DNA from: Sphingomicrobium sp. | Lineage (GTDB): Bacteria > Pseudomonadota > Alphaproteobacteria > Sphingomonadales > Sphingomonadaceae | Reading direction: 5' to 3' | DNA length: 64,000 nucleotides | NCBI GenBank assembly: GCA_036563485.1 | Contig: DATCMI010000001.1 | Span: 248,001 to 312,000 of the forward strand | Part shown: positions 224-56,190 of the stretch, one piece after another | Layout: every line of letters begins with the position of its first letter | Position numbering within the stretch: the first letter of the stretch is position 1 | Translations under genes and position numbers: made by a program | The notes under the pieces: model-generated | Told to the model about the DNA's origin: nothing | Database searches by the model: none | The model's input: the letters and a program-made list of their open reading frames with translations, nothing else

Positions 224-1294
224 ATGAGCAGTGGGCAGAAGATCGGCGTCCTCACCTTTCACAAGTGCATCAACTACGGCTCCTACTGGCAGGCGCGCTG
301 CCTCGCAGAAGGCCTGCGCGCGCGAGGCCATGACGTCGAACTTCTCGATCACGACTGCGAAGCGGTGCGCCGCGCCGAGATCCGCTGTGCGCTTCAGCCG
401 ACCCTGCCTGAGCGGACGCCGCGCGACCAAGTGAAGGCCTATGCCGCCAAGACGCGGCGGTTCGTGCGCGCCATATCCGGCCTCCCGCTGTCGAAAAGCT
501 TCCCGCTTCACCAGCCGGAACGCGCCGGCGAATATGATGCAATCGTGGTCGGCAGCGACGAGGTCTGGAACTTCCGCCACCCCTGGTACGGCAGCAAGCC
601 ACTGTTCTTCGGCGAAGGGGTGAAGGCGAAACGCTTGCTTTCCTACGCCGCAAGCTTCGGCAACCACAGCGCCTGGGACGGAATCGATCCGGGCTGGGCC
701 CGCAAGCTCGACCGCTTTTCCGCGATTTCCGTCCGCGACAGCAACAGCTGGCACCTTGTCCGCAACGGCACGCAACGCGAACCGGACATGGTTCTCGATC
801 CGGTCCTGCAATTCTCAAGCGCGCTGCCCGCGCATTCCGCCGATGAAGGGGAACCCTACGCGCTCGTCTACGGCCACGGCTTCCCCGACTGGCTGAAGCA
901 CAAGGTGCGCCAATGGGCCGACGACCGCGGCATTCGCCTGATCAGCGTCGGCTATTCCAATGAGTTCGCCGACGAACAGCGCATCGACGCGGACCCCCAC
1001 GAGTTCGCGCGGCTGATGGCGGGATCGTCCGCGGTCATCACCAACTTCTTCCACGGCTGCGTCTTCGCTTTGGTCAACGGCAAGCCCTGGGCATCCGCCC
1101 CGAGCGATTACCGATCGATCAAGATTCCCGACCTCGCATCGAGCCTCGGCGCCGAGCACCGGCTGATCGACCAGGAAACCTCCGCGACCAAGCTCGCCGA
1201 TCTCCTCGAGATGCCGGTCATTCCCGCGGTCGTCGCAAACATCCAGCAAGCCCGCGCCCGCTCCAACGCTTTCCTCGATGCGGCACTTTCCTGA
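224..1294 (+). CDS. Polysaccharide pyruvyl transferase family protein
   Basis: Predicted to transfer a pyruvyl (ketal) group from phosphoenolpyruvate to a sugar of a surface polysaccharide, in the cytoplasm. The 356-residue protein opens with GVLTFHKCINYGSYWQ, typical of the family. It has a VGSDEVWNF motif near residue 108 and ITNFFHGCVFALVNGKPW near residue 272, which match the conserved GSDxVW and xxxRxHG-like regions of pyruvyl transferases. I chose the ATG at 224; a GTG at 203 would add seven residues. Its 3' end overlaps the next gene by 17 bases, so the two are probably translated together. The donor and the acceptor sugar cannot be told from sequence. Confidence 0.8.
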   Translation: MSSGQKIGVLTFHKCINYGSYWQARCLAEGLRARGHDVELLDHDCEAVRRAEIRCALQPTLPERTPRDQVKAYAAKTRRFVRAISGLPLSKSFPLHQPERAGEYDAIVVGSDEVWNFRHPWYGSKPLFFGEGVKAKRLLSYAASFGNHSAWDGIDPGWARKLDRFSAISVRDSNSWHLVRNGTQREPDMVLDPVLQFSSALPAHSADEGEPYALVYGHGFPDWLKHKVRQWADDRGIRLISVGYSNEFADEQRIDADPHEFARLMAGSSAVITNFFHGCVFALVNGKPWASAPSDYRSIKIPDLASSLGAEHRLIDQETSATKLADLLEMPVIPAVVANIQQARARSNAFLDAALS

Positions 1295-2675
1295 GCCGCG
1301 GCCGGACGGGGCCAACCGCCTCGTCAGCCCGGACGAGATCGTCCGGTCGGGTCTCTGCATCGGCTGCGGCAGCTGCGCGGCGACGCAAGGCGGCGCGATG
1401 CAATGGGACCGCGACGGCTTCTTGAAGCCGCAGCTGCCCTCGCCTCGCGAACCGTCCGAAACCTTCTCGCATCAATGCCCCTTCTCGCCCGCTGCGGCCA
1501 ATGAAGACCAGATCGCCGGCGAGCGCTTCCCCGCTCCTGCAGAAATCGATCCACGCATCGGCCGCTTCGTCGCCGCTTATGTCGGTCATGCCGTCGAGGA
1601 CCCGTTCCGCCGCAACGGCAGCTCCGGTGGCCTGACCAGCTGGGTTGCCGCCGAGCTTCTGCGCAGCGGCGCGGTGGACGGCGTTGCGCACGTCGCGCCA
1701 ACCGATCCTGCGAACGAAGGCTTCTTCGCCTACCGCATCTCGCGGAACCTCGAAGACCTCAGCCGGGGCGCGAAGTCGCGCTACTATCCGGTCGAACTAT
1801 CCTCGGTGCTGCGCGAAATCCGCGACACGCCGGGACGCTACGCCGTGGTCGGCGTCCCCTGCTTCATCAAGGCGATCCACTTGCTTCGCCGCCTCGACCC
1901 GGTAATTCGCGAGCGCGTCACGCATACGCTTGGGCTGTTCTGCGGCCACCAGAAGAGCGCGGCGATGGTCGAAAGCTTCGCCTGGCAGCTCGGCACGGAA
2001 GTGCAACGCGTCCGCGCGCTCGATTACCGGATCAAGGACGAAAGCCGCCCTGCCAATTGGTATCGCGCGCACCTCGAGCTGGACGATGGCGGCGTGGCCG
2101 AACAGGATTGGTGGCACTTAGCGGACGGCGATTGGGGCGCCGGTTTCTTCCAAAACCCGGCATGCAATTGGTGCGACGACGTCGTCGGCGAAACTGCGGA
2201 CGTCAGCTTCGGTGACGCTTGGGTCCAGCCTTATTCGTCGGACGGGCGCGGCACCAATGTCATGATCGTGCGCTCCGCCGAAGTCGCCGAGTTGGTCGAT
2301 GCCGCGCGACTCGACGGGCGTCTCCAGCTCGAACCCGTAAACGCGGATTTCATCGCCGGGACGCAAGCGGCCGGCCTGCGCCACCGGCGCGACGGGCTGG
2401 CCTACCGCCTGACCTGGCGCAAGCGCGGCATCAAGCCGCCAAAACGCGTCGCGCCCAGCGCCGACCTGCCGCTCCGGCGCAAGCTGGTTTACCGCCTCCG
2501 CTTCGCGATCGCAGCGCGCAGCCACCAGATGCTGCGCCTTGCCCGCCGCCTCGGCCGCCCGGGCCTGTATACCCGCTGGGCGCGGGCATCGCTGCACCTT
2601 TACCAGTCGGTGACCTGGTCGCAAGGTCGGCTGGGCAAGTTGCTCGATCGCATCCTGCCGCAACCGGAGCGCTGA
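1278..2675 (+). CDS. Coenzyme F420 hydrogenase/dehydrogenase beta-subunit (FrhB) family iron-sulfur protein
   Basis: The 465-residue protein has an N-terminal ferredoxin-like cysteine cluster (C27, C30 and C33 in LCIGCGSC), then the FrhB signatures GVPCF (near residue 192) and LGLFCGHQK. A second cysteine pair lies in NPACNWCDD near residue 295, followed by SFGDAW. The family transfers electrons through Fe-S clusters and a flavin. Members beside pyruvyl transferases occur in polysaccharide gene clusters and are thought to act on a sugar or a nucleotide sugar, not on F420. It overlaps the pyruvyl transferase gene by 17 bases, which supports a shared pathway. The C-terminal 100 residues are Arg-rich. 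The exact reaction is unknown. Confidence 0.75.
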   Translation: MRHFPEPRPDGANRLVSPDEIVRSGLCIGCGSCAATQGGAMQWDRDGFLKPQLPSPREPSETFSHQCPFSPAAANEDQIAGERFPAPAEIDPRIGRFVAAYVGHAVEDPFRRNGSSGGLTSWVAAELLRSGAVDGVAHVAPTDPANEGFFAYRISRNLEDLSRGAKSRYYPVELSSVLREIRDTPGRYAVVGVPCFIKAIHLLRRLDPVIRERVTHTLGLFCGHQKSAAMVESFAWQLGTEVQRVRALDYRIKDESRPANWYRAHLELDDGGVAEQDWWHLADGDWGAGFFQNPACNWCDDVVGETADVSFGDAWVQPYSSDGRGTNVMIVRSAEVAELVDAARLDGRLQLEPVNADFIAGTQAAGLRHRRDGLAYRLTWRKRGIKPPKRVAPSADLPLRRKLVYRLRFAIAARSHQMLRLARRLGRPGLYTRWARASLHLYQSVTWSQGRLGKLLDRILPQPER

Positions 2676-2736
2676 CAAACGGCCATTGCGGCGAACGCTT
2701 CTTCTTGTATCGTGAGCAGCTCACGAGGAGAGCGGC

Positions 2737-3828
2737 GTGGCGAGCCTTGAACTGAAGGGCATCTCGAAATCGTTCGGCGCAACGCCGATCCTCGACCATG
2801 TCGACCTGTCGATCGACGCGCGCGAGTTCATCGCTTTCCTCGGTCCGTCGGGCTCCGGCAAATCGACGCTGCTGCGCATCATTGCCGGTCTCGAGACGGC
2901 AGACAGCGGCGAAGTCTGGCTCGAAGGCCAGCGCATCGACCAGCTTCCTCCGGGCAAGCGCGGCGTCGCGATGGTCTTCCAGCATTATGCGCTCTACCCG
3001 CACATGAGCGTGCGCGAGAACATGGCGTTCGGGCTCAAGAACGCGCGGGTCGCTCAGGACGAGATCGAGCGCCGGATCCTGGATGCGGCGCGGGTGCTCG
3101 AAATCGAACCATTGCTCGATCGCAAGCCTGCCGAGATGTCCGGAGGCCAGCGTCAACGCGTCGCCATCGGCCGCGCGCTGGTCAAGGAACCCAAGCTGTT
3201 CCTGCTCGACGAACCGCTGTCGAACCTGGACGCCGCGCTTCGCCTGCGCACCCGCGTCGAGCTTGCTCAGCTCAAACAGCGCGTGGACGCCGCCGTGATC
3301 ATGGTCACGCACGACCAGGCGGAAGCCATGACTCTCGCGGACCGCATCATCGTCATGAACGACCGTCGCATCCAGCAGGTCGGAGCGCCAATGGAAATCT
3401 ACAGCAAGCCGGCCAACACCTTCGTCGCGCAGTTCGTCGGCTCGCCGGCGATGACCCTGATCCCCGCGGCACCGAAGGCCGCTGACGGTGAGTTCGCGAC
3501 TCTCGAGCTCGGCGACGGCACGGTCGTCGACACCAAGGTGCCCCGTGCCGAACTGAAGAACGGCGACCTGCGTGTCGGGCTTCGCCCCGAGGCCGTGCGC
3601 GTTGGCGGCCGCGGCAAGGGCGTCACGAAGGCGAAGGTCGACCTTGTAGAGCGCCTCGGCGAACGCACGCTGATCTACGCCCGGCTCGGCAATGGCCAGG
3701 CCATCACCGCGGAGGACGAAGGCTATAGCCGCGTGAAGATGGGCGACGAAGTCCCACTGAAAATCGACGGCAGCGCCGCCCATGTGTTCGACGCCGACGG
3801 CAACGGCTATCACGGGACTGCCGCATGA
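2737..3828 (+). CDS. Sugar ABC transporter ATP-binding protein (MalK/UgpC type)
   Basis: ATPase of a carbohydrate importer. The 363-residue protein has Walker A GPSGSGKST at 36-44, signature MSGGQRQR near 134, Walker B LFLLDEP near 155 and the switch histidine in VTHDQAE near 190. A C-terminal TOBE/OB domain (about 235-355) is the feature that sets MalK/UgpC-type subunits apart. The GTG start is supported by GAGGAG at 2725-2730. It is the first gene of a four-gene operon in which every junction overlaps (ATPase, two permeases, binding protein). The likely cargo is an oligosaccharide; MalK-like subunits can serve more than one importer. Confidence 0.92.
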   Translation: MASLELKGISKSFGATPILDHVDLSIDAREFIAFLGPSGSGKSTLLRIIAGLETADSGEVWLEGQRIDQLPPGKRGVAMVFQHYALYPHMSVRENMAFGLKNARVAQDEIERRILDAARVLEIEPLLDRKPAEMSGGQRQRVAIGRALVKEPKLFLLDEPLSNLDAALRLRTRVELAQLKQRVDAAVIMVTHDQAEAMTLADRIIVMNDRRIQQVGAPMEIYSKPANTFVAQFVGSPAMTLIPAAPKAADGEFATLELGDGTVVDTKVPRAELKNGDLRVGLRPEAVRVGGRGKGVTKAKVDLVERLGERTLIYARLGNGQAITAEDEGYSRVKMGDEVPLKIDGSAAHVFDADGNGYHGTAA

Positions 3829-4703
3829 CCAGTGAGCGGGATTGGCGCGGCTTCCTGTTCGTCGCGCCGTTTCTGTTCCTCTATTCCGTCATCCTGATCT
3901 TCCCGCTGCTGCGCGGCATCTGGCTCAGCCTCAACCAGGTCGACCTGTTCGGCGACGGCCATTTCGTCGGCTTCGGCAATTACTTGCGGCTGCTCGAAGA
4001 CCCGATCTTCGGCCAGTCGCTGATCAACACCTTTGTCGTCACCTTGATGATCGTGCCGCCACTGACGATCATTGCCCTTGCCTTGGCGATGGCGCTCAAC
4101 CGCGCGACCAGGGGCGCGGCGATCTTCCGCGGGATCTTCTTTTCATCGGCCGTGCTGTCCGTGACCATCGTCACGCTGATCTGGCGCTTCATGCTTGCAC
4201 CAGACGCAGGTTTCCTCGGCTTCGTCGCGACGTCCGTCGGCGCGCAGCCGCTGCCGTTCCTCAGCGACGTCGACCTGGCGCTCCCCGCGATCGCGATCAC
4301 GACCATCTGGTGGTCCGTTGGCTTCCCGATGCTTCTGTTCCTCGCCGGGCTTCAGCAAATTCCGGAGGACATGTACGAGGCCGCGGCGCTCGACCAGGCG
4401 AACCGCTGGACGACCTTCTTCCGCATCACTTTGCCGTCGCTCCGCCGCACGGTCGTGCTCGTCGTGATGCTGCAGACGGCGGCCCAGCTGCAGCTGTTCG
4501 GCCAGTCTCAATTGCTGACCGCCGGCGGTCCGAGCGGCGCGTCGCGCACCGCCGTGCTGTTCCTGTTCGAAACCGCGTTTGGACGCTGGGAGCTCGGCTA
4601 TGCGAGCGCGGCGGCGGAGATCCTGTTTCTGATCATCCTTGCCGTGACTCTCACCCAATATTGGCTGACCGGCCGAGCGACGGGAGCGGCCGTTGAGCGC
4701 TGA
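3825..4703 (+). CDS. Sugar ABC transporter permease, MalF type
   Basis: First inner-membrane permease of the importer. The 292-residue protein has about six hydrophobic segments. The cytoplasmic EAA loop, EAAALDQANRWTTFFRITLP, starts near residue 184 and docks onto the ATPase. It starts with an ATGA overlap on the ATPase gene and its end overlaps the next permease by 11 bases, so the subunits are translationally coupled. It is shorter than E. coli MalF and resembles the minimal CUT1-family permeases (LacF/UgpA-like). Confidence 0.9.
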   Translation: MTSERDWRGFLFVAPFLFLYSVILIFPLLRGIWLSLNQVDLFGDGHFVGFGNYLRLLEDPIFGQSLINTFVVTLMIVPPLTIIALALAMALNRATRGAAIFRGIFFSSAVLSVTIVTLIWRFMLAPDAGFLGFVATSVGAQPLPFLSDVDLALPAIAITTIWWSVGFPMLLFLAGLQQIPEDMYEAAALDQANRWTTFFRITLPSLRRTVVLVVMLQTAAQLQLFGQSQLLTAGGPSGASRTAVLFLFETAFGRWELGYASAAAEILFLIILAVTLTQYWLTGRATGAAVER

Positions 4704-5529
4704 TGTCCGCCGCGGCCGCCTGACGCCGCTCGGCTGGGCCGGGCTGATCCTCGGCGCCATCATCATGCTCGCGCCGCTAATCTGGACGGTGCTGCTGTCG
4801 CTCAAGGCGAATGCGGATCTCGTCGGGCACAGCGAAGCGGCGCTCAAGCCGCCGTACACGCTGCAGAATTACGTCGCGATTTTCGGCAACAGCCTGACGA
4901 CGCGCTGGCTGCTCAACAGCGCCATCGTTGCGCTCGGCCAGACCGCCGGCGTGCTGATCCTTGCCAGCCTCGCGGGCTACGGCTTCTCGCGCCTCGACTT
5001 CCCGTTCCGCCGCACCCTCTTCATCTTCGTGCTCGTCGGCCTCGCAATCCCCAGCCAGGCGGTGATCCTCGTCCAGCACCAGCTGTTCGCCTGGCTTCAC
5101 CTCCACAACAGCTATCCCGGCCTCATCCTTCCAGGATTGATCGCGCCTTTCGGCGTCTTCTTCATGACCACCTATATGCGGGGCATCCCGCGCGAGCTCG
5201 ACGAAGCCGCGATGCTCGACGGCGCGTCGCGGTGGCGGATCTTCTGGAAAGTGATCCTGCCGCTGACGATCCCCGCGCAATCGACGCTCGCGGTCTTCAC
5301 CTTCCTCGGCGCCTGGAACGATTATTGGTGGCCGCTGATCAGCGCGACGCGCAGCGACATGTACACGCTCACGGTCGGTCTCGCTGCGGCGCAGATGAAC
5401 TATGCACAGACCAGCGGGCTCGGCTATTTGATGGCGCAGGCCGTGTTCGCCTCGATCCCGATCTTCATCGTCTACATCATTTTCCAGAAGCAGATCGTCC
5501 GCGCGATGGCCGGGACGGCGGTACGATGA
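4693..5529 (+). CDS. Sugar ABC transporter permease, MalG type
   Basis: Second permease of the importer, 278 residues, with six hydrophobic segments and the EAA loop DEAAMLDGASRWRIFWKVIL near residue 169. The start is a TTG at 4693 inside the end of the previous gene; no upstream ATG fits and the next in-frame ATG would cut into the first membrane segment. It ends with an ATGA overlap on the substrate-binding protein gene. With the MalF-type partner it forms the translocation channel for a saccharide. Confidence 0.9.
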   Translation: MSADVRRGRLTPLGWAGLILGAIIMLAPLIWTVLLSLKANADLVGHSEAALKPPYTLQNYVAIFGNSLTTRWLLNSAIVALGQTAGVLILASLAGYGFSRLDFPFRRTLFIFVLVGLAIPSQAVILVQHQLFAWLHLHNSYPGLILPGLIAPFGVFFMTTYMRGIPRELDEAAMLDGASRWRIFWKVILPLTIPAQSTLAVFTFLGAWNDYWWPLISATRSDMYTLTVGLAAAQMNYAQTSGLGYLMAQAVFASIPIFIVYIIFQKQIVRAMAGTAVR

Positions 5530-6833
5530 AGCGTGCACTGCTGGCCATGTTGTGCGCGCTGTCACTCGGCAGCTGCGCCAAGTCCGACGACAAGACGCAC
5601 ATCTACCTGCAGCGCTTCTTCGGCGAGTGCGGTGCCGAATATGGCGGCAGCACCGACGTCTCCAAGGCGGAGGGCGAATGCGGGATCATCACGACGATGA
5701 TCGACAAGTTCAACGCCGAGAACCCTGATGTCCGCATCGACGTCAACGTCGTTGCCTGGCCCGGCTATCCGCAGCTCACCGCCCAGGTAGCCGCGCGCGA
5801 CCCGCCCGATCTGGTGACGATGCATTCAGGCGTGATCGGCGACTATGCCACGAAGGGGCTGGTCGAACCGGTCGAACCCTATCTCGCCGCCGCCGGCATT
5901 CCTGCCGACGGCTTCACGGAAGCGGCGCGCCAGGGCGTGACGATCGGCGGCCATGTCTACGGACTTCCGTGGGACACGCACGGCGGGCTCTTTCATGTGA
6001 ACACTGCGCTGTTCGCGAAAGCCGGGCTGATGCGCGGCGGCAAGCCGATTCTTCCAACCTCGGCTGACGAGTTGATCGCGCAAGCCAAGCAGTTCCAGGA
6101 GCGGACCGGCAAGCCGTACCTGATTCAGAGCAACGTCGGCGACACCGCTTATGCCGCGCGCAACCTGTGGACCTATATGATGGCCAATGGCGCGGTGCTG
6201 TTTCCCGATGCCAAGCACACCCGCCTCAACACGCCGCTCGGCCTCAAGGTCGCGACCTTCTTCAAGCGCATCAATGACGAGCGGCTCGGCACCTTGAACA
6301 TGGATACGCCGGCGGCGATCGCCGCGTTCATCAACGGCGAAGGCGGCATTTACCCGACCGGCACGTGGATGATCGGCTCGTTCCAGAAGGAGGCCGAAAC
6401 GCCGGGGCGTCCGCTGCACAACAGCTACGCCGTATTTCCTTATCCGCGGCTGTGGGGACAGCATGTCGAGTTCGTTTCCGGCCACGCGTGGGTCGTCCCG
6501 GCGCGGGAGCGGACGCAGCGGCAGCGGGACGCGATCGCGCGTTTCTTCAAGTTCATGGCCGCGCACAATTTCGATTGGGCGCGCACGGGTCACATCCCTG
6601 CGTTCAAGGCGGTGCTTCAGGATCCGCGTTTCAAGGCGCTCCCGCACCGCAGCGACATTGCGCCGCTCGCCGACATCGGCCGTCCGCTGCCCGGCACCGT
6701 GCTGCGCCAGAATGCGATCGAGGGGATTGTCGGCGAAGAAGCGGTTGCGGGCTTCACCGGCCAGAAGCCGCTGCCCTACGCGCTGTCGCAAGCCGAAAGA
6801 CGCGTGAACCTGCTGCTGGCGCAGGCGGAGTAA
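5526..6833 (+). CDS. Sugar ABC transporter substrate-binding lipoprotein (CUT1 family)
   Basis: Periplasmic binding component of the importer. The 435-residue protein begins with a lipoprotein signal, MKRALLAMLCALSLGSC, with the lipid-anchored cysteine at C17. The mature part follows the extracellular solute-binding protein family 1 pattern: NAENPDVRIDVNVVAWPGY and DLVTMHSGV early, then FINGEGGIYPTGTWMIG near residue 280. The start ATG overlaps the stop of the upstream permease. Unusually for this family, the mature N-terminus carries two extra cysteines within an insertion (GECGAEYGG and EGECG). The neighbouring GH172/GH43 enzymes suggest an arabino- or fructo-oligosaccharide as cargo, which is inference. 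Confidence 0.88.
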   Translation: MKRALLAMLCALSLGSCAKSDDKTHIYLQRFFGECGAEYGGSTDVSKAEGECGIITTMIDKFNAENPDVRIDVNVVAWPGYPQLTAQVAARDPPDLVTMHSGVIGDYATKGLVEPVEPYLAAAGIPADGFTEAARQGVTIGGHVYGLPWDTHGGLFHVNTALFAKAGLMRGGKPILPTSADELIAQAKQFQERTGKPYLIQSNVGDTAYAARNLWTYMMANGAVLFPDAKHTRLNTPLGLKVATFFKRINDERLGTLNMDTPAAIAAFINGEGGIYPTGTWMIGSFQKEAETPGRPLHNSYAVFPYPRLWGQHVEFVSGHAWVVPARERTQRQRDAIARFFKFMAAHNFDWARTGHIPAFKAVLQDPRFKALPHRSDIAPLADIGRPLPGTVLRQNAIEGIVGEEAVAGFTGQKPLPYALSQAERRVNLLLAQAE

Positions 6834-6957
6834 TCGCACCCGTACAACATGCGTTAGTGTTGCTTCTTTGCCGCTTGTAAGTTCGCGCAACAGCGTCATA
6901 AAAACACAACACAAACCGGCTGACGTGGTCGGCATTGTCGCTGAGGGGGACTCATTT

Positions 6958-9954
6958 ATGCGGCGCACTCATTCCTTGCTTTGGTCTACCACTGGGCTGA
7001 CGGCGATGTTCGCCGCCGCCGCGCCTGCCCTTGCGCAGGAAGTTGTCGTTCCACCGAACCCGGGAGCGGAGGCGCAGCAAAGCCCTGCCGATCCGATCCA
7101 GAGCCCGGACGCGCCGCAGAGCCCGCAGGCCGCGGCTCCGGGCGAGGACACTGCGATCGTCGTGACCGGTCTTCGCCGTTCGCTGCAGTCCGCACGCAAC
7201 ATCAAGCGCAACAGCGACCAGGTCGTCGATGCGGTTGTCGCCGAAGACATCGGCAAGCTGCCGGACATCACCGTGTCCGACACCGCCGCCCGCATCCCGG
7301 GCGTGCAGGTCGAGCGCGCACGCGGTGAGGCCGGGCGCGTACTGCTTCGCGGCCTCGACAACACTTATTACACGACGACCTATAACGGTCGTGAGATCTT
7401 CACGGCGGAAACGCGTTCCGTCGCGCTGCAGGACTTCCCCGCCGGCGGCATCGCAGCCTTGGAAGCGTTCAAGACCTCGACCGCAAATCTCGTCGAGCCG
7501 GGCATCGCCGGGCTGATCAACGTCCGTTCGCGGCGGCCGTTCGACTTCAGCGGCTTCGAAGTGGCGGGCTCCGTCTGGGCCAATTACCCGCGCCAGTCGC
7601 GCGAGCTGAAGCCGAATGCACAGCTTCTGCTCACCAACCGTTGGGAGCTCGGGAACGGTCAGGAAATCGGCGCGCTGATCAACTTCTCCTACACGCGCCT
7701 TGCGTACCAGGACTCGATCCGCCGTCATGGCTTCTTCATCGCCAACCTCGCCGGCGCGCGGTCGCCGGACTGGCCTGAAATCCACTACGACCAAGCCGAT
7801 CGCTGGCGTCCGTCGGTCAATGGCGCGCTGCAGTGGCGTCCGTCGTCCGACCTGGAACTCTACGCCGAAGGCCTGTGGCAAGGATATCGGGAAGAAAATA
7901 CCGACGCCATGTGGTCGCAGCCGCTCTGGGGCGCAGCGCCGGAGAACTACCAGAACATCGTTCTCGACGGAAACAGCAACCGGATCGTCAGCGGTACGGT
8001 CATCAGTCCGCGCCGTGCGGAAGGTTTCCAGGGCGCCACCAAGCGCCGCACCAACACCTACCAGTTCGCCGTCGGCGGCCGTTACGACGCAGGGCCGCTG
8101 CGCCTGACCGCGGACCTCGCCCGCACCAGCAGCGAATTCAACCTGCGTACCGAAAGCGTCGATTTCTACATCAACCGGAATGATTATTCGGTCGACTGGT
8201 TCACGGGCACGATCGGCAGCGAAGGCCCGACCTTTGCGGTCAACGGCCTCGATTTCTCCGATCCCGGCAATTACGCCTATCGCGGCTTCTTCGAAGATTA
8301 TCTGACCGCCAAGGGCGACGACTGGCAAGGCCGGCTCGACGCCGAATACAAGCCTGCCGGCATTGATTGGTTGCCGGTCATCCAGGCCGGTGTCCGCTAC
8401 ACCAACCGCGACGCGAGCCGGTCCGGTGGCGCTCGGTACTGGAACGCCAACGACATGGGCATTCCGATCACCGACGTGCCGCTCGACTACCGTATGCTCC
8501 ACTCGGCATTCCGCGGCGACCCGCTGAAGCCGACGCCGCTGAGCTGGCTTGCACCCACGTTCGACAGCGTCTGGTCGAACCTTGAAGCGCTGCGGCAGTT
8601 CAACGTCGACCGTGGCGTGCCGATCGATCCGAACCGCGATCGTGCGCAGAACAACGACGCCAACCCGCCGGTCCCGGTGCCGACTCGCAACTTCTCGATC
8701 AACGAGAAGACGCTCGCCGGCTACGGCCAGATCAAGTTCAACTTCGACGGCAGTCTGCCGGTCGACGGTATCATCGGCGTGCGCGTCGTTCGTACCGAGG
8801 ACGACATCAAAGGCTTCAGGGCGGATCCGGGTGCTGCGGCGCTGCCCGTCGGTGTGAAGAACAATTACACCACCGTGCTGCCCAACCTGAACGTCAATAT
8901 CGGGCTCAGCGATGACCTGAAGCTGCGCCTTGCAGCGACCAAGACGATCACCCGCCCGCAGTTCGAGCAGCTCAACCCGGGCCTCGTGCTCGACACGGCG
9001 CCGACCTGCACTCCCGCCCAGGCAAACTGCATTCGGACGGGTCGGGGCGGCAACCCGTTCCTCGATCCGCTGCGGTCGCGGAACTACGACGCGAGCCTCG
9101 AATATTACTTCTCGCGTACGGGCTTTGCCTCGGTCGCTGCGTTCCGCCGCGACATGAAGGGCTTCATCGTCAATCGCGCGGTGACCTATCCGGAGCCTGA
9201 CGAAGCCACCGGCTTGCCGATCCAGATCACTGGTCCGGTCAACACCAACAATGGCCGCATCCAGGGCCTCGAAGCGCAGGTCAGCACCTTCTTCGATTAT
9301 GATTTTGTGCCGACATGGGCGCGGTCGTTCGGCGTTCAGGCGAACGCTACCTATATCGACGCGAAGATCGACTTCCCGCTGTTCTGCGCTCCCACGGCGG
9401 CGGAATGCGTACCCGGACCAGCGGGCGCGAATGCGACGGTCGTGCGGACTCGTATTCCGGACGTATCGAAGTGGACCTTCAACCTTGTCGGCATGTACGA
9501 GAACGGGCCGCTCAGCGCTCGTCTCTCCTACAACCACCGCACCAGCTATCCGGAAGGCACGCTCGACCCGCGCGACGGCTTCTTCACCCTGCAGGGCCGC
9601 GGGCGCGGCACCGGCCGCCTCGACTGGTCGAGCAGCTACAATATCCGCGACAACCTGACCGTGTTCTTCGACTGGACCAACATCCTCAATGTCCCGTTCC
9701 GCTCGGATATCGTGCGCGTCGATTATGCCGCGGGCGTGCCGACCGGGCGCGAAGAATTCCCGATGGTGGTCCGGTACAACGAATCGGTGATCTCGGGCGG
9801 TATCCGCTTCCGCTTCGGCGGGCGGAAGGCCGCGCCGCCGCCGCCGATGCAGGTTGCGCCTCCTCCCCCGCCGCCGGTGGTGGAGCAGCCGGCTCCGCCG
9901 CCGCCTCCCCCGCCGCCGCCGGCGCCGGTGGAGCGCGGAGAGCGCGGCAACTAA
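6958..9954 (+). CDS. TonB-dependent receptor with a proline-rich C-terminal extension
   Basis: Outer-membrane, energy-coupled importer. The 998-residue protein has a signal peptide ending near APALAQ (residue 27), a Pro-rich spacer, and a plug domain with DIGKLPDITVSDTAARIPGV. The long beta-barrel is of the TonB-Xanth-Caul (TIGR01782) type used for carbohydrates in Caulobacter, Xanthomonas and sphingomonads. The start ATG follows GAGGGGGA at 6943-6950. The barrel appears to end at SGGIRFRFGG, but about 45 more residues follow, almost all Pro with Ala, Val, Glu and a final Arg/Gly-rich tip. Most receptors end on the last strand with an aromatic residue. The context (sugar importer upstream, halogenase-like protein and glycosidases downstream) points to glycan uptake. 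Confidence 0.92.
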   Translation: MRRTHSLLWSTTGLTAMFAAAAPALAQEVVVPPNPGAEAQQSPADPIQSPDAPQSPQAAAPGEDTAIVVTGLRRSLQSARNIKRNSDQVVDAVVAEDIGKLPDITVSDTAARIPGVQVERARGEAGRVLLRGLDNTYYTTTYNGREIFTAETRSVALQDFPAGGIAALEAFKTSTANLVEPGIAGLINVRSRRPFDFSGFEVAGSVWANYPRQSRELKPNAQLLLTNRWELGNGQEIGALINFSYTRLAYQDSIRRHGFFIANLAGARSPDWPEIHYDQADRWRPSVNGALQWRPSSDLELYAEGLWQGYREENTDAMWSQPLWGAAPENYQNIVLDGNSNRIVSGTVISPRRAEGFQGATKRRTNTYQFAVGGRYDAGPLRLTADLARTSSEFNLRTESVDFYINRNDYSVDWFTGTIGSEGPTFAVNGLDFSDPGNYAYRGFFEDYLTAKGDDWQGRLDAEYKPAGIDWLPVIQAGVRYTNRDASRSGGARYWNANDMGIPITDVPLDYRMLHSAFRGDPLKPTPLSWLAPTFDSVWSNLEALRQFNVDRGVPIDPNRDRAQNNDANPPVPVPTRNFSINEKTLAGYGQIKFNFDGSLPVDGIIGVRVVRTEDDIKGFRADPGAAALPVGVKNNYTTVLPNLNVNIGLSDDLKLRLAATKTITRPQFEQLNPGLVLDTAPTCTPAQANCIRTGRGGNPFLDPLRSRNYDASLEYYFSRTGFASVAAFRRDMKGFIVNRAVTYPEPDEATGLPIQITGPVNTNNGRIQGLEAQVSTFFDYDFVPTWARSFGVQANATYIDAKIDFPLFCAPTAAECVPGPAGANATVVRTRIPDVSKWTFNLVGMYENGPLSARLSYNHRTSYPEGTLDPRDGFFTLQGRGRGTGRLDWSSSYNIRDNLTVFFDWTNILNVPFRSDIVRVDYAAGVPTGREEFPMVVRYNESVISGGIRFRFGGRKAAPPPPMQVAPPPPPPVVEQPAPPPPPPPPPAPVERGERGN

Positions 9955-17760: not shown

Positions 17761-18134
17761 AGGCGGCCGTGCTGGTCCTCGGTCTGGAAGATCCGGTCCA
17801 CTTCCATGACCAGGTCCTTCAGGTGGAACGGCTTCGACAGAAGCTTGGCTTCCGGCGCCGTGCGGCCGCCCTGCAAGGCCACGGCGGCAAAGCCGGTGAT
17901 GAACATCACGCGGATCGACGGGTCGATGGCGCTCGCCTTCTGCGCCAGCTCGATCCCGTCCATTTCCGGCATGACGATATCGGTCAGCAGCAGATCGAAC
18001 TGCTGCGATTCCAAGAGCGGCATCGCCTCGGTGCCGCAGCCGACCGACTCCACCTCATAGCCGACGCGCTGAAGCGCGCGCTGGAGGTACTCGCGCATCG
18101 ACGTATCGTCTTCAGCCAGCAGGATTCTCGCCAT
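17757..18134 (-). CDS. cpdR: CpdR-like response regulator
   Basis: A single receiver domain of 125 residues. The acidic pair is D9/D10, the phospho-acceptor is D52 in LLTDIVMPEMDG, and the conserved Lys is in LLSKPFHLKDLV near residue 101. GFAAVALQGG matches Caulobacter CpdR (FITGFAAVAL) closely. In Caulobacter, unphosphorylated CpdR primes ClpXP for degradation of cell-cycle proteins and is phosphorylated through the CckA-ChpT relay. There is no output domain, which fits an adaptor role. Confidence 0.88.
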   Translation of the reverse strand: MARILLAEDDTSMREYLQRALQRVGYEVESVGCGTEAMPLLESQQFDLLLTDIVMPEMDGIELAQKASAIDPSIRVMFITGFAAVALQGGRTAPEAKLLSKPFHLKDLVMEVDRIFQTEDQHGRL

Positions 18135-47695: not shown

Positions 47696-47788
47696 TGAAG
47701 ACGTGCGTCGTCAAACGCTTGCGCAGGCGGCACCCGGCACCCACATCCAACAGCCGCGTTGACCGGGGGAGCCGCCTCGCGCTACTCA

Positions 47789-47803
47789 GAACATAAACGG
47801 AAC
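47789..47803 (+). promoter_or_regulatory. LexA (SOS) operator upstream of uvrA
   Basis: GAAC-ATAAACG-GAAC is an exact GAAC-N7-GAAC, the reverse complement of the alphaproteobacterial LexA site GTTC-N7-GTTC. It ends 12 bases before the uvrA ATG, and uvrA is a classic SOS gene in this class. It also lies in the divergent intergenic region of the three-gene accessory operon. Confidence 0.8.
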
Positions 47804-47815
47804 GAACGCGCCAAG

Positions 47816-50776
<2,961 letters not shown>

Positions 50777-50833: not shown

Positions 50834-50852
50834 CCCCGGGCTGGATCCGGGG
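50834..50852. repeat. Short palindrome between uvrA and its second tail
   Basis: CCCCGG-GCTGGAT-CCGGGG is a perfect six-base inverted repeat with a seven-base centre, preceded by the GC-rich GGAGCCCCGAAGGGGGCG. It resembles the dispersed CCCGGATCCAG-type intergenic palindromes of alphaproteobacteria. It sits exactly between the uvrA stop and the second uvrA-like tail. Confidence 0.6.
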
Positions 50853-50854
50853 CC

Positions 50855-50953
50855 CTGCTAGACCGGGCGTCCGTGGAGCCTGAGGTGGTGAGTGCGGCGC
50901 CGAAGAAGGTGAAACGCGCGCGTAAGGCTCCGGTGGATTACGCAGCGAAGTAG
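50855..50953 (+). pseudogene. Diverged second copy of the uvrA 3' end
   Basis: In one frame this reads LLDRASVEPEVVSAAPKK, then VKRARKAPVDYAAK and TAG. The uvrA tail reads [17 protein letters not shown], then [14 protein letters not shown] and TAG. Both the order and the stop position match, yet the DNA differs at many sites, so this is not a fresh tandem copy. It has no start codon and is not expected to be expressed. It is probably the remnant of a former uvrA 3' end left after recombination. Confidence 0.75.
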
Positions 50954-51025: not shown

Positions 51026-52150
51026 ATGGCGACGATTAATGTACCTGCCGCGCGCGTTCAGCAGGGCACTCTTTCGCTGTTTGCCACGGCGATTCGGGTG
51101 AAAGATCTTTTAGAGCCGGGCTTTTACAGCGTTGACACTCTGGACCCGGAAAGCGGCGACAAGGGGTATCAACGCCTCTTGAACACTGCCCGAGCAAAGC
51201 GGCTGGCGGATTACGTCATCGCCGGACAGGACACTAAAGATGCCTTCCTCCCCACCTCGGTCTTCCTCGCCACAGACAAGCAACTCTACATAAATGAGAG
51301 CAACAACACGCTTACGATCGATACCGATGCAGTCGGTCCTTTCAGCGTTGTCGATGGCCAACACCGCTTGGAGGGGCTGCGGCTTGCAGCTGGTAAAGAC
51401 GCGCGCGTGCTTGATTTCGAGGTACCCGTAAACATCGCGACCAATCTCAATCAGCTTGCGCAGATGTGCCACTTCCTCATTGTCAACACGACTCAAAAGA
51501 GCGTCGACAAGGCCGTCGAACAGCAGATCGTCGCTAGGCTCAGTGACGCGATTGAGTTTGAAGATGTCCCGAGCCTTCCTCGCTGGATTCGGCGCATTGT
51601 CGAGCGCGGAGAAGTTGATCGTGCACTCAAGATGATCGAGTACCTCAACACGACCGCAGACTCGCCTTGGCATTCGAAGGTTCAGATGGCGAACGCGCAG
51701 GGGGGCGGTTTCGCCATCAAACAAGACACATTCGCCAAGGCGATCATCAAATACGTCCTAACGGCGAACAACCCAATCACAGCGCTAAAAGATTTCGATC
51801 GCGAAAAGAAGGTATATTTGAACTACTGGAAAGCAGTTGCCAGCCTCCTCGACGACGGCGACTCAGATACACTGTACAAATACAATGGCGTTGAGCTGTT
51901 CTCCCGCTTTTCTGTGCCGTTCTTCATGAGAATGATGGATAAGGGGAGCTTCAAAGTAGAAGACATGAAGGGCGCTCTGGAACGCTGTTTTGAGAATATG
52001 GACGGTGAGTTCGCCGGTGTAGGTCATCCGGAGTTTTGGAAGACCGGCGGGAAAGCGGGAATGTTGAATGCCGCCGCGATTGCCGCGATGGTGCAGGAGA
52101 TGGCTGGCGCGCTTCACAAGAGCGGGATGTCAGCCGAAATCGAGATTTGA
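51026..52150 (+). CDS. DGQHR domain protein (DndB-like)
   Basis: A 374-residue protein with FSVVDGQHRLEGLRLA near 110-124, the signature of DGQHR/DndB proteins, preceded by RLADYVIAGQDTKDAFLPTSVFL and followed by LIVNTTQKSVDKAVEQQIVARL, both usual around the fold. DndB binds DNA and controls phosphorothioate modification, but stand-alone relatives occur in phage and defence islands. GGGGGAA precedes the ATG. It overlaps the next gene by four bases. No dndA/C/D/E is nearby. GC is lower than in the surrounding core genes. Confidence 0.82.
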   Translation: MATINVPAARVQQGTLSLFATAIRVKDLLEPGFYSVDTLDPESGDKGYQRLLNTARAKRLADYVIAGQDTKDAFLPTSVFLATDKQLYINESNNTLTIDTDAVGPFSVVDGQHRLEGLRLAAGKDARVLDFEVPVNIATNLNQLAQMCHFLIVNTTQKSVDKAVEQQIVARLSDAIEFEDVPSLPRWIRRIVERGEVDRALKMIEYLNTTADSPWHSKVQMANAQGGGFAIKQDTFAKAIIKYVLTANNPITALKDFDREKKVYLNYWKAVASLLDDGDSDTLYKYNGVELFSRFSVPFFMRMMDKGSFKVEDMKGALERCFENMDGEFAGVGHPEFWKTGGKAGMLNAAAIAAMVQEMAGALHKSGMSAEIEI

Positions 52151-52485
52151 ACGTTCGCGAGCTTAGGCCGGCGCCGACCGGAGTTGAACCCTTCCGCAGA
52201 GACACATCAAAGTTCGTGCCGACTGGCTCCGGATGCTATGCTCTTACGACGGCAACCGGTCACGTCCTGTACGCCGGGCTTGCCTCACACCTGCAATCCA
52301 GGATGCTCCAACACCTGGATGACCCTGCGAAAATCTCGTCGACCGCGGAAGGTCGAGCTGTTTGCTTTCATTGGCTACAGTGCGAGGAAATAAATGCCGT
52401 GGAACGGGGGTGGCTCAACATGCACCGGGTCAGGCACCGGCGCTTGCCAGTTCTAAATACCTTGGATTCTCCCGTTAGCTACTAG
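52147..52485 (+). CDS. Small GIY-YIG nuclease-like protein
   Basis: A 112-residue protein with a TTG start overlapping the DGQHR stop (TTGA). SGCYALTTATGHVLYAGLAS reads as the GIY...YIG core (GCY and YAG), followed by SRMLQHL with the conserved Arg and His positions, and EEINAVERGWLNMHR with a candidate catalytic Glu. It is shorter than most GIY-YIG proteins and lacks other domains. It is translationally coupled to the DGQHR protein, so they probably act together. Catalytic activity is not certain because both core tripeptides are non-standard. Confidence 0.6.
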   Translation: MNVRELRPAPTGVEPFRRDTSKFVPTGSGCYALTTATGHVLYAGLASHLQSRMLQHLDDPAKISSTAEGRAVCFHWLQCEEINAVERGWLNMHRVRHRRLPVLNTLDSPVSY

Positions 52486-53093
52486 GCCGCCCGCGCCTTG
52501 CTCCAAGCGTCAGCGAACTGGCCCAAATCCTTGAACGTCAAGTCCGTTACGTTTGCGCCTGTTTCAGCGGCAAGCTCAGGGAGCGCGGCAGCGAATTCGT
52601 TATAGCTGTCGATAATCAGCTGCGCCGCAGGAATCGTGCGCCTTCGCGATGCCGTTTGCAGCCAGTTCCTCACAGCCCTAATTGCATCATTGGTGTCGTT
52701 GTTATGCGTAGTAACATCCACGCCGCCGAGATCAGATATGAATTGCTGAAAGCGGTGCGGTTCCCGGTCCAACACCAAACAGTTTTTCCTCTTCTGATCT
52801 GCATCGCCAAAGCGTTTCGCTCCTAAGAAAACGCCGAGTTCGAGGGGCATGTTGAATCTGGGCAGTTGGCTGCTTTCGTCCACCTCAGTCCGCGAGAGGT
52901 CATGTATACCGAGGCGAGCCTCACCGATGATTCGATAAAGCTTGTCAATCCGGTTTTCAGTCGCATCTGAATACTCAAGGGCTGACCGAGCGCGGAATCC
53001 GCAAGCGATAACAGCAAAGGTGATTGCATCGAACAGCGGGCGGTACTGATCGTCGAACGGGCAGTTTATGAAAACGTCCCTGGCTCGAGTCAC
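52482..53093 (-). CDS. Conserved protein with TIR/nucleoside-deoxyribosyltransferase-like features
   Basis: A 203-residue protein of a widespread unnamed family: VFINCPFDDQYRPLFDAITF at the start, GIHDLSRTEVDESSQLPRFN near 62, then MPLELGVFLGAKRFG and KNCLVLDREPHRFQQFISDL. The layout (N-terminal strand and helix, DLS motif, Glu in PLELGVFLGA) parallels TIR and nucleoside 2-deoxyribosyltransferase folds, whose Glu cleaves N-glycosidic bonds. That link is inference. The GTG start overlaps the DUF3606 stop by four bases. It converges with the GIY-YIG-like gene. Confidence 0.65.
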   Translation of the reverse strand: MTRARDVFINCPFDDQYRPLFDAITFAVIACGFRARSALEYSDATENRIDKLYRIIGEARLGIHDLSRTEVDESSQLPRFNMPLELGVFLGAKRFGDADQKRKNCLVLDREPHRFQQFISDLGGVDVTTHNNDTNDAIRAVRNWLQTASRRRTIPAAQLIIDSYNEFAAALPELAAETGANVTDLTFKDLGQFADAWSKARAA

Positions 53094-53359
53094 CGCCGAC
53101 CGCCTCGGTGTCCCTTGAGATACTGTTCAACAGCGCGCGCCGCTTTTGCGGCGCTCACGCGGTCATAGCCCGAGACGCCGCTGAGGCGTTCCGCGGCGGC
53201 ATTGAGCTTCTCGCGATCGTTCCCGACCTTTGTAATGAGCGCGCGCGCTTGATCGCGGCTGAGCCCGTGTTTGCGAGCGAAATATCCGAGTTCATACCCC
53301 TGCCCGCCAGCGGCCCGGCTGCGGTCACGGCCGCCTCGCTTGCTTTTATTGTCAGCCAC
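53090..53359 (-). CDS. DUF3606 domain small protein (copy 1)
   Basis: An 89-residue basic protein: RGGRDRSRAAGGQGYELGYF, then ARKHGLSRDQARALITKVGN and DREKLNAAAERL, the DUF3606 core. A 28-residue extension (SGYDRVSAAKAARAVEQYLK and a Gly/Arg end) is absent from copy 2 at 56005. The GTG start is followed by a normal first codon series. Its stop overlaps the start of the TIR-like gene, a sign of translational coupling. DUF3606 function is unknown. Confidence 0.8.
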   Translation of the reverse strand: MADNKSKRGGRDRSRAAGGQGYELGYFARKHGLSRDQARALITKVGNDREKLNAAAERLSGVSGYDRVSAAKAARAVEQYLKGHRGGRR

Positions 53360-56004: not shown

Positions 56005-56190
56005 CTACCGCTTCAGCTTCTCCGCCGCCGCGTTCAGCTTCTCCCGGTCGTTGCCGACCTTTTCGATCAGCTTGCGCGCTTCCTCGCGCGGGATGCCGTG
56101 CTTGCGGGCGAAATAGCCGAGCTCATAGCCCTGACCCGCCGCAACCCGGCTGCGGTCGCGCCCGCCGCGGTTGTTCTTGTCGTCTGCCAT
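56005..56190 (-). CDS. DUF3606 domain small protein (copy 2)
   Basis: A 61-residue protein, MADDKNNRGGRDRSRVAAGQ, then GYELGYFARKHGIPREEARK and LIEKVGNDREKLNAAAEKLK. It is the plain DUF3606 core and is closely similar to residues 1-60 of copy 1 (53090). Tandem ATG codons lie at 56193 and 56190; GGGAGA fits the second. The family is linked to stress in some bacteria but has no proven function. Confidence 0.82.
   Translation of the reverse strand: MADDKNNRGGRDRSRVAAGQGYELGYFARKHGIPREEARKLIEKVGNDREKLNAAAEKLKR

What the first reader, a model, noticed from the sequence alone, without database searches (positions are those of the whole stretch)
51026..53359. Accessory cassette: DGQHR + GIY-YIG-like genes facing DUF3606 + TIR/deoxyribosyltransferase-like genes
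Seen: two short operons with four-base overlaps at both internal junctions (TTGA, GTGA) converge, in lower-GC DNA just after uvrA. One carries a DGQHR (DndB-like) protein and a small GIY-YIG-like nuclease candidate; the other a DUF3606 protein and a member of a widespread unnamed family with a Glu-containing motif like TIR or nucleoside deoxyribosyltransferases. Known: DndB-like, GIY-YIG and TIR-type genes all occur in defence islands. Inference: a compact defence or DNA-damage module combining DNA recognition, cleavage and nucleotide or NAD depletion.
Basis: partly seen in the sequence, partly recalled or inferred. Interest (0 to 1): 0.78.

Follow-up and report, generated by a model that had tools for sequence, protein, structure and literature searches.

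The report
Two adjacent two-gene defence-like modules
Four foreign-looking genes beside uvrA appear to be two separate mobile gene pairs, a candidate DNA-cutting pair and a toxin-like TIR-fold enzyme with a small partner protein, and each pair recurs on its own elsewhere.

Summary
The four ORFs and both four-base overlaps are real, and the domain calls hold: DGQHR (ParB-like fold), GIY-YIG, TIR/NDT fold, DUF3606. The four-gene cassette does not hold: in 53 loci with relatives of the TIR-like gene, none of the other three was found in the flanks held. Two independent modules converge here.

Module 1, DGQHR + GIY-YIG: in 8 of 8 judgeable close DGQHR relatives (five plasmids, two chromosomes, one phage contig) the GIY-YIG gene follows in the same register. 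Best reading: a nucleotide switch plus nicking nuclease, a split analogue of GmrSD/BrxU/SspE.

Module 2, a TIR-fold enzyme (invariant Glu85) preceded by a small ORF in 49 of 52 loci (controls 132 of 346). The partner's head varies: DUF2188 in 13 of 55 relatives, DUF3606 only in the window. The window partner looks chimeric: a DUF3606 head plus a 30-residue tail resembling the partners of the two nearest TIR-like genes. Best reading: a toxin-antitoxin-like, NAD- or nucleotide-cleaving module.

All activities are inferred.

The parts
51026..52150 (+). Module 1, gene 1: DGQHR protein, 374 aa, ParB/Srx-type fold; motif VVDGQHR
   Evidence: TIGR03187 1.7e-26, PF14072 3.5e-12; model pLDDT 85, pTM 0.60; Foldseek Noc/PadC/ParB, E 1.9e-3 to 1.4e-2, prob 0.96-1.00
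52147..52485 (+). Module 1, gene 2: small GIY-YIG nuclease, 112 aa, TTG start, 4-nt overlap with gene 1
   Evidence: PF01541 7e-4, 9 of 9 members match; C30-Y31, Y42, G44, H56, E86, N104 invariant in 9 rows; UvrC 1yd6 1e-4 by profile
52482..53093 (-). Module 2, gene 2: TIR-fold enzyme, 203 aa, invariant Glu85 on the helix after strand 3
   Evidence: model pLDDT 89, pTM 0.88; Foldseek SPARTA TIR 8oz6 4.5e-4, NDT 9emx 6.3e-3, both prob 1.00; 36-row alignment
53090..53359 (-). Module 2, gene 1: small partner, 89 aa; DUF3606 head (about 1-59) plus 30-residue C-terminal tail; 4-nt overlap with the TIR-like gene
   Evidence: PF12244 3e-9 over residues 4-54; tail/head boundary; tail match to L026 and L009 partners

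Best explanation
Two unrelated mobile two-gene modules sit tail to tail. Module 1 (DGQHR + GIY-YIG): the DGQHR protein has a ParB/Srx-type fold and probably binds and hydrolyses a nucleotide when it recognises a feature of incoming DNA; the GIY-YIG subunit, translated by coupling, then nicks or cuts that DNA. It would work like a split GmrSD/BrxU/SspE with a GIY-YIG nuclease in place of the HNH nuclease. Module 2 (small partner + TIR-like enzyme): the enzyme cleaves an N-glycosidic bond of NAD+ or another nucleotide through Glu85 and is held in check, or aimed, by a small basic partner encoded just upstream. The partner has an exchangeable head (here DUF3606; elsewhere often DUF2188 or a TGRF-type head) and usually a short helical motif that probably contacts the enzyme. 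Shown here: coordinates, predicted folds, conserved active-site residues, recurrence of each pair, non-recurrence of the four in the loci read, head/tail make-up of the partner. Inferred: all biochemical activities, the antitoxin or sensor role of the partner, the DNA target, anti-phage function.
For: Pair 1: GIY-YIG follows DGQHR in 8 of 8 judgeable relatives at 55-64% identity; no other gene is shared by all nine neighbourhoods. Active-site residues kept; ParB-type fold. Pair 2: small upstream ORF in 49 of 52 loci vs 132 of 346 controls, regex motif in 30 of 52 vs 4 of 346, within 10 nt in 40 of 52 vs 38 of 346; 14 of 14 further loci with a hit have one; motif finder 723 bits vs 504-545 in 8 shuffles; DUF2188 in 13 of 55. 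TIR fold, Glu85 invariant. Separateness.
Against: No activity was measured. The DGQHR model has pTM 0.60 and no PDB match at E<=1e-3; BrxU and SspE score E 0.14-0.54 with probability 0.25 or less. The TIR-like family has almost no sequence-level TIR support. The motif model puts its best site in the window partner inside DUF3606 (13.5 bits) rather than in the tail (8.6 bits). Three loci (L011, L012, L013) have no small upstream ORF by my rule. 3 of 8 plasmid records with the GIY-YIG gene have no DGQHR match. Control ORFs are mechanical, not verified genes.
Confidence: 0.6

Rival explanations
1. One integrated four-gene defence or DNA-damage system.
For: Adjacency, similar low GC and convergent ends.
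Against: None of the other three genes was found beside the TIR-like gene in 53 loci or in 15 more with short flanks; none of the eight DGQHR-GIY relatives shows the TIR-like or DUF3606 gene in the flanks held.
Confidence: 0.05
2. The TIR-like protein is a nucleoside deoxyribosyltransferase-type salvage enzyme rather than a toxin, and the small partner is a regulator or chaperone.
For: NDT structures match the model with probability 1.00.
Against: Patchy (15 of 346 genomes of the order), found across many phyla, plasmids and IMG/VR contigs; 5 of 37 copies broken (assembly errors not excluded); best fold match is the SPARTA TIR.
Confidence: 0.15
3. The DGQHR-GIY pair is a selfish mobile element (homing-type nuclease with a DNA-binding/regulatory partner) or an autoregulated pair, not a restriction system.
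For: GIY-YIG domains occur in homing endonucleases (general knowledge); the pair moves between plasmids, chromosomes and a phage structural block; DndB is reported as a regulator of phosphorothioation (PMC4507180, passages; PMC10853773, passages).
Against: Insertion contexts differ and no common target gene was seen, although target sites were not searched directly; a GajB-like helicase and a PD-(D/E)XK gene flank it in Sinorhizobium.
Confidence: 0.2

Closest known systems
GmrSD / BrxU / SspE (DUF262 NTPase + HNH nuclease; modification-sensing restriction)
   Same: ParB/Srx-type domain with a DGQ[Q/H]R motif plus QR and FxxxN (PMC4619093, passages; QR49-50, DGQHR110-114 and F150/N154 are invariant in A6), paired with a nuclease, in mobile or defence-rich places
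   Different: Nuclease is GIY-YIG and a separate gene; PF03235 is far below cut-off (E 0.2); fold match to BrxU/SspE weak
DndB / DpdB / DGQHR_dnd_1
   Same: DGQHR domain over the domain cut-off
   Different: Far below the equivalog cut-offs (50 of 450, 48 of 300, 14 of 328 bits); no DndC in the genome. A 2024 analysis reports URI/GIY-YIG nucleases at the edges of Dnd operons (PMC10853773, passages), so a DndB-GIY-YIG neighbourhood is not wholly without precedent
Bacterial TIR effectors (SPARTA TIR-APAZ, TIR-STING, Thoeris ThsB, CAP12/PCTIR)
   Same: TIR fold, Glu on the helix after strand 3
   Different: No APAZ, STING, SAVED or sirtuin partner seen; stands with a small basic protein instead
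Type II toxin-antitoxin pairs (for example the NAD-degrading RES-Xre, named in the references of PMC9503650)
   Same: Small basic first gene, closely coupled enzyme second, mobile, with broken copies
   Different: Different folds; head domain of the partner exchanged; neutralisation untested

Membership tests
GIY-YIG nuclease | Pfam PF01541 profile match | tested here: met
   Window protein 20.2 bits, below the 22.6-bit cut-off, but 9 of 9 members match at E<=0.01, best 1.3e-9; profile hits UvrC at 1e-4
GIY-YIG nuclease | Active-site Tyr, Glu and Asn | tested here: met
   Y31, Y42, G44, E86, N104 invariant in 9 rows; the motif Arg is not among the invariant columns
DGQHR domain (TIGR03187) | Score over curated cut-off and DGQHR pentapeptide | tested here: met
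   93.6 vs 58.85 bits; DGQHR at 110-114
Dnd or Dpd system component (DndB, DpdB, DGQHR_dnd_1) | Equivalog cut-off | tested here: not met
   14.2 of 328, 47.9 of 300, 50.2 of 450 bits
Dnd system component | dndC in the genome | tested here: not met
   0 matches at E<=0.01; none of the 14 control genomes was over the cut-off either, so there was no strong positive control
GmrSD/SspE-type restriction | DUF262 (PF03235) plus DUF1524/HNH | tested here: not met
   PF03235 12.2 of 33.2 bits, no HNH gene in the pair
GmrSD/SspE-type restriction | NTP-dependent, modification-dependent cleavage | not testable with these tools
   needs biochemistry
TIR domain | TIR fold | tested here: met
   SPARTA TIR 8oz6 E 4.5e-4 prob 1.00 TMq 0.56; it is the only match at E<=1e-3
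TIR domain | Recognised by TIR sequence profiles | tested here: inconclusive
   2 of 36 members at E<=0.01 for PF10137 and for PADLOC TIR
TIR domain | NAD+ cleavage | not testable with these tools
   needs an assay
Toxin-antitoxin pair | Two coupled genes that recur together | tested here: met
   49 of 52 with a small upstream ORF vs 132 of 346; within 10 nt 40 of 52 vs 38 of 346
Toxin-antitoxin pair | Enzyme toxic, partner neutralises | not testable with these tools
   needs co-expression
DUF3606 | Score over cut-off | tested here: met
   37 vs 24.3 bits, residues 4-54; tail lies outside

The most novel reading that the evidence does not exclude
A multi-phylum TIR-fold effector module, undescribed in the literature searched, in which one enzyme family is wired to exchangeable head domains (DUF2188, DUF3606, TGRF-type) through a short common helix in the small partner. 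The heads would be sensors or anchors that decide when the NAD- or nucleotide-cleaving enzyme is released, giving DUF2188 and DUF3606 a defence role. Beside it lies a minimal two-gene restriction system that couples a ParB-type nucleotide switch to a GIY-YIG nickase.
Probability: 0.35. Interest if true: 0.8.

Novelty: new variant of a known kind. Interest (0 to 1): 0.6.

Why it matters
If right, two gene pairs become testable defence modules. The TIR-like family, called 'hypothetical protein' in the 12 of 17 plasmid records where a gene is listed under the match, would gain a fold, a likely active site and a regular partner. DUF2188 and DUF3606 would gain a context as heads of that partner. 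The DGQHR-GIY pair would suggest that a ParB/Srx-type restriction switch can work with nucleases other than HNH.

Tried and rejected
Single four-gene system: rejected on co-occurrence. Dnd/Dpd membership: rejected on cut-offs and on no DndC match. A fixed defence neighbourhood: not found; PADLOC hits among nine neighbours tested were a GajB-like UvrD helicase (L083) and a partial PDC-S07 match (L087). Profile searches of PDB sequences for the TIR-like and DGQHR families gave nothing meaningful. DGQHR in IMG/VR with the single protein: none; with the alignment: two close contigs. Annotated phages: no TIR-like match, one distant DGQHR. A recent copy of the local DUF3606 gene as origin of the partner head: not favoured (78% DNA identity, GC3 0.68 vs 0.885).

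Literature, open-licence library only: 'DGQHR' with 'GIY-YIG' 1 paper; 'DUF3606' 2, by listing unrelated; 'DUF2188' with 'TIR' 0; 'DGQHR' 6; 'DUF2188' 7, by listing unrelated; others. 'Undescribed' means not found by these searches.

Caveats on counts: the regex motif was written after seeing the partners, so 30 of 52 is optimistic. In the motif finder the real set had 3 starts of 60 rounds and each of 8 shuffled sets 2 of 30, which favours the real set somewhat. In one search controls are maximal ORFs of 250 aa or more on either strand, not verified genes. Rows dropped: from alignment A1, 8 of the 37 loci (five broken: L012, L031, L041, L044, L045; three near-duplicates: L017, L024, L039); L041 from the partner counts (52 of 53); six near-duplicates before the motif run (43 of 49); further near-duplicates and L041 before (58 loci, 55 with a small ORF); from the 36 loci, those not used for the DGQHR model (same contigs, near-duplicates, longer proteins), leaving 22 plus L096 and the window.
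Full report
What is there. GC is 0.534-0.566 over 51-53 kb against about 0.65 around it; GC3 is 0.62-0.67 in the four genes against 0.90 in uvrA. The first gene is a DGQHR protein over the family cut-off. The second has a GIY-YIG domain. The fourth has DUF3606. The third has no family over cut-off.

The four genes are not a set. Relatives of the TIR-like gene: 37 loci in genome contigs (by record title Pseudomonadota, Acidobacteriota, Verrucomicrobiota, Planctomycetota, Bacteroidota, Gemmatimonadota, Chloroflexota, Poribacteria and a Desulfobacteraceae), 17 plasmid records (6 fetched) and 10 IMG/VR contigs. In these 53 loci none of the other three genes was found by tblastn (E<=1e-3; E<=1e-2) in the flanks held, at most about 6 kb a side and shorter where contigs end. 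Nor in 15 further loci from the window's order with about 1.5 kb flanks (one, L211, gave no hit to the window protein itself). Apart from the TIR-like gene itself, neighbouring ORFs of 100 aa or more recur in at most 3 of the loci compared.

Module 1. DGQHR relatives at 55-64% identity lie on five plasmids (three Sinorhizobium, one Rhizobium, one Cupriavidus), in two other genomes among 385 of the class (3 of 385 with our own, E<=1e-20) and on one IMG/VR contig. In 7 of the 8 the GIY-YIG gene begins with the same four-base overlap; in the eighth (L096) the match starts at residue 6 in the same register. A further contig (L097) ends inside DGQHR and cannot be judged. Searching 8 and 16 family members of the two genomes added none. 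All-against-all comparison of nine neighbourhoods finds DGQHR in 9, GIY-YIG in 7 (in L087 and L096 it was hidden by my ORF filter but is there by tblastn), a helicase-type gene in three Sinorhizobium loci and one gene in two. Contexts differ: UvrD/GajB-like helicase and PD-(D/E)XK gene; Tn3 transposase, lepA, a NUDIX-phosphorylase protein, and baseplate-hub and tape-measure genes of a phage. The 34 other viral-contig DGQHR loci show no such GIY-YIG gene within about 3 kb. Conversely, of 8 plasmid records with the GIY-YIG gene, 3 (Rhizobium etli and R. phaseoli) have no DGQHR match in the record at E<=1e-5 (one read).

GIY-YIG residues C30-Y31, Y42, G44, H56, E86 and N104 are invariant in nine rows; the profile finds UvrC in the PDB at 1e-4. 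The DGQHR model (pLDDT 85, pTM 0.60) has no PDB match at E<=1e-3; its seven best are Noc, PadC and ParB chains (E 1.9e-3 to 1.4e-2, prob 0.96-1.00, TMq 0.20-0.27), then BrxU (E 0.14, prob 0.25) and SspE (E 0.17-0.54, prob under 0.1). A published analysis relates GmrS to the DGQHR domain through QR, DGQ[Q/H]R and FxxxN and proposes NTP binding (PMC4619093, passages); the same residues are invariant in our 24-row alignment. For SspE, a 2026 paper's title names GTP hydrolysis as an allosteric switch for cleavage (PMC13251355, title and start of abstract). Hence the proposed nucleotide-gated recogniser plus nicking nuclease. The genome has no DndC match, so self phosphorothioation is an unlikely signal; that search had no strong positive control.

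Module 2. The TIR-like model matches the SPARTA TIR first (8oz6, E 4.5e-4, prob 1.00, TMq 0.56; the only match at E<=1e-3), then TIR-STING, plant TIRs and nucleoside deoxyribosyltransferases at E 2e-3 to 4e-2. Glu85 is invariant in 36 rows and sits on the helix after strand 3, where the TIR-DrHyd-SLOG class has its active site (PMC9503650, passages). Five of 37 genome copies are broken or truncated, one (L012) by an in-frame stop at the position of that Glu; some may be assembly errors.

The small partner. A small ORF (45-180 aa) ends between 60 nt before and 45 nt after the start in 49 of 52 loci, against 132 of 346 control ORFs; with the regex motif 30 of 52 against 4 of 346; within 10 nt 40 of 52 against 38 of 346. 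All 14 further loci with a hit have one. L011, L012 and L013 have none by this rule. Partners are more basic than control small ORFs (0.153 vs 0.097 net charge per residue). A motif finder gives 723 bits on 43 partners and 504-545 on 8 shuffled sets, with more rounds for the real set. Of 55 relatives' partners, 13 carry DUF2188 and none DUF3606; 15 of 56 match a TGRF-type pattern.

The window partner looks chimeric. Residues 1-59 are 80% identical (78% DNA) to a stand-alone DUF3606 protein about 2.7 kb away, and the match ends where the tail begins; the genome has only these two DUF3606 matches. DUF3606 relatives occur in 9 of 70 genus genomes including our own. Of ten distinct copies read to their stop besides the partner, eight end within about ten residues of position 57; L219 runs on into a long extension, through which tblastn extends the partner match to residue 87 at 47% overall identity, and L222 matches poorly. 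All 16 plasmid matches stop by residue 64. The tail scores best against the partners of L026 and L009 (47 and 43; 2 of 1000 shuffled tails reach 47), whereas the head has no significant match among partners (16 of 300 shuffles reach its best). L009 and L026 also carry the TIR-like genes nearest to ours by path, though the exact branching is not resolved. Against the tail as contact site: the motif model's best site in the window partner is inside DUF3606 (13.5 bits) and the tail comes second (8.6 bits); the stand-alone protein has the same DUF3606 site (14.7 bits). DUF3606 may thus itself hold a helix of this kind.

Arrival. A second, displaced uvrA 3' end lies at about 50852-50953 between uvrA and module 1. 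Of 20 genus genomes read downstream of uvrA (out of 70 searched), G022 has two such fragments and G026 a weak one. This suggests exchange at the uvrA end. Because a partner from a genome of the window's own family (L197) equals that of records named Sphingomonadaceae (L023, L024), the window probably belongs to Sphingomonadaceae (inference).

Verdict. Observation confirmed, interpretation partly supported. Two real, separately mobile, defence-like pairs, each a new variant of a known kind; the partner with swapped heads is the least expected part.

Noticed in passing
window 50852-50953; L176 (G022) and L188 (G026) downstream of uvrA: A displaced second uvrA 3' end follows uvrA (47759-50776). 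G022 has two such fragments and G026 a weak one, so the uvrA end may be a recombination hot spot.
   Followed up: partly
window 56005-56190 (-): Stand-alone DUF3606 protein, 61 aa, 80% identical to the head of the TIR-like gene's partner.
   Followed up: yes
window 17981-18066 (-): ARAGORN reports a tRNA of unknown type with a four-base anticodon (gcgg).
   Followed up: no
L096 (IMG/VR UViG_3300049811_000823) 2324-8842: The DGQHR-GIY pair sits between baseplate-hub and tape-measure genes of a phage, like a cargo gene pair.
   Followed up: partly
L086 (Sphingomonas aliaeris plasmid) 679-6621: The TIR-like pair follows TniA/B/Q-type transposition genes, an HU gene and a serine protease.
   Followed up: no
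L087 10278-11660: NUDIX domain fused to a nucleoside-phosphorylase domain beside the DGQHR-GIY pair; partial PADLOC PDC-S07 match.
   Followed up: no
L041 4345-5031; L012 around 6238-6240: In L041 the small partner runs in frame into a TIR-like gene that lacks its N-terminal part; in L012 an in-frame stop falls at the position of the conserved Glu.
   Followed up: partly
L095 4902-5267 (Rhizobium etli plasmid): Orphan GIY-YIG gene of the same family with no DGQHR match nearby.
   Followed up: partly
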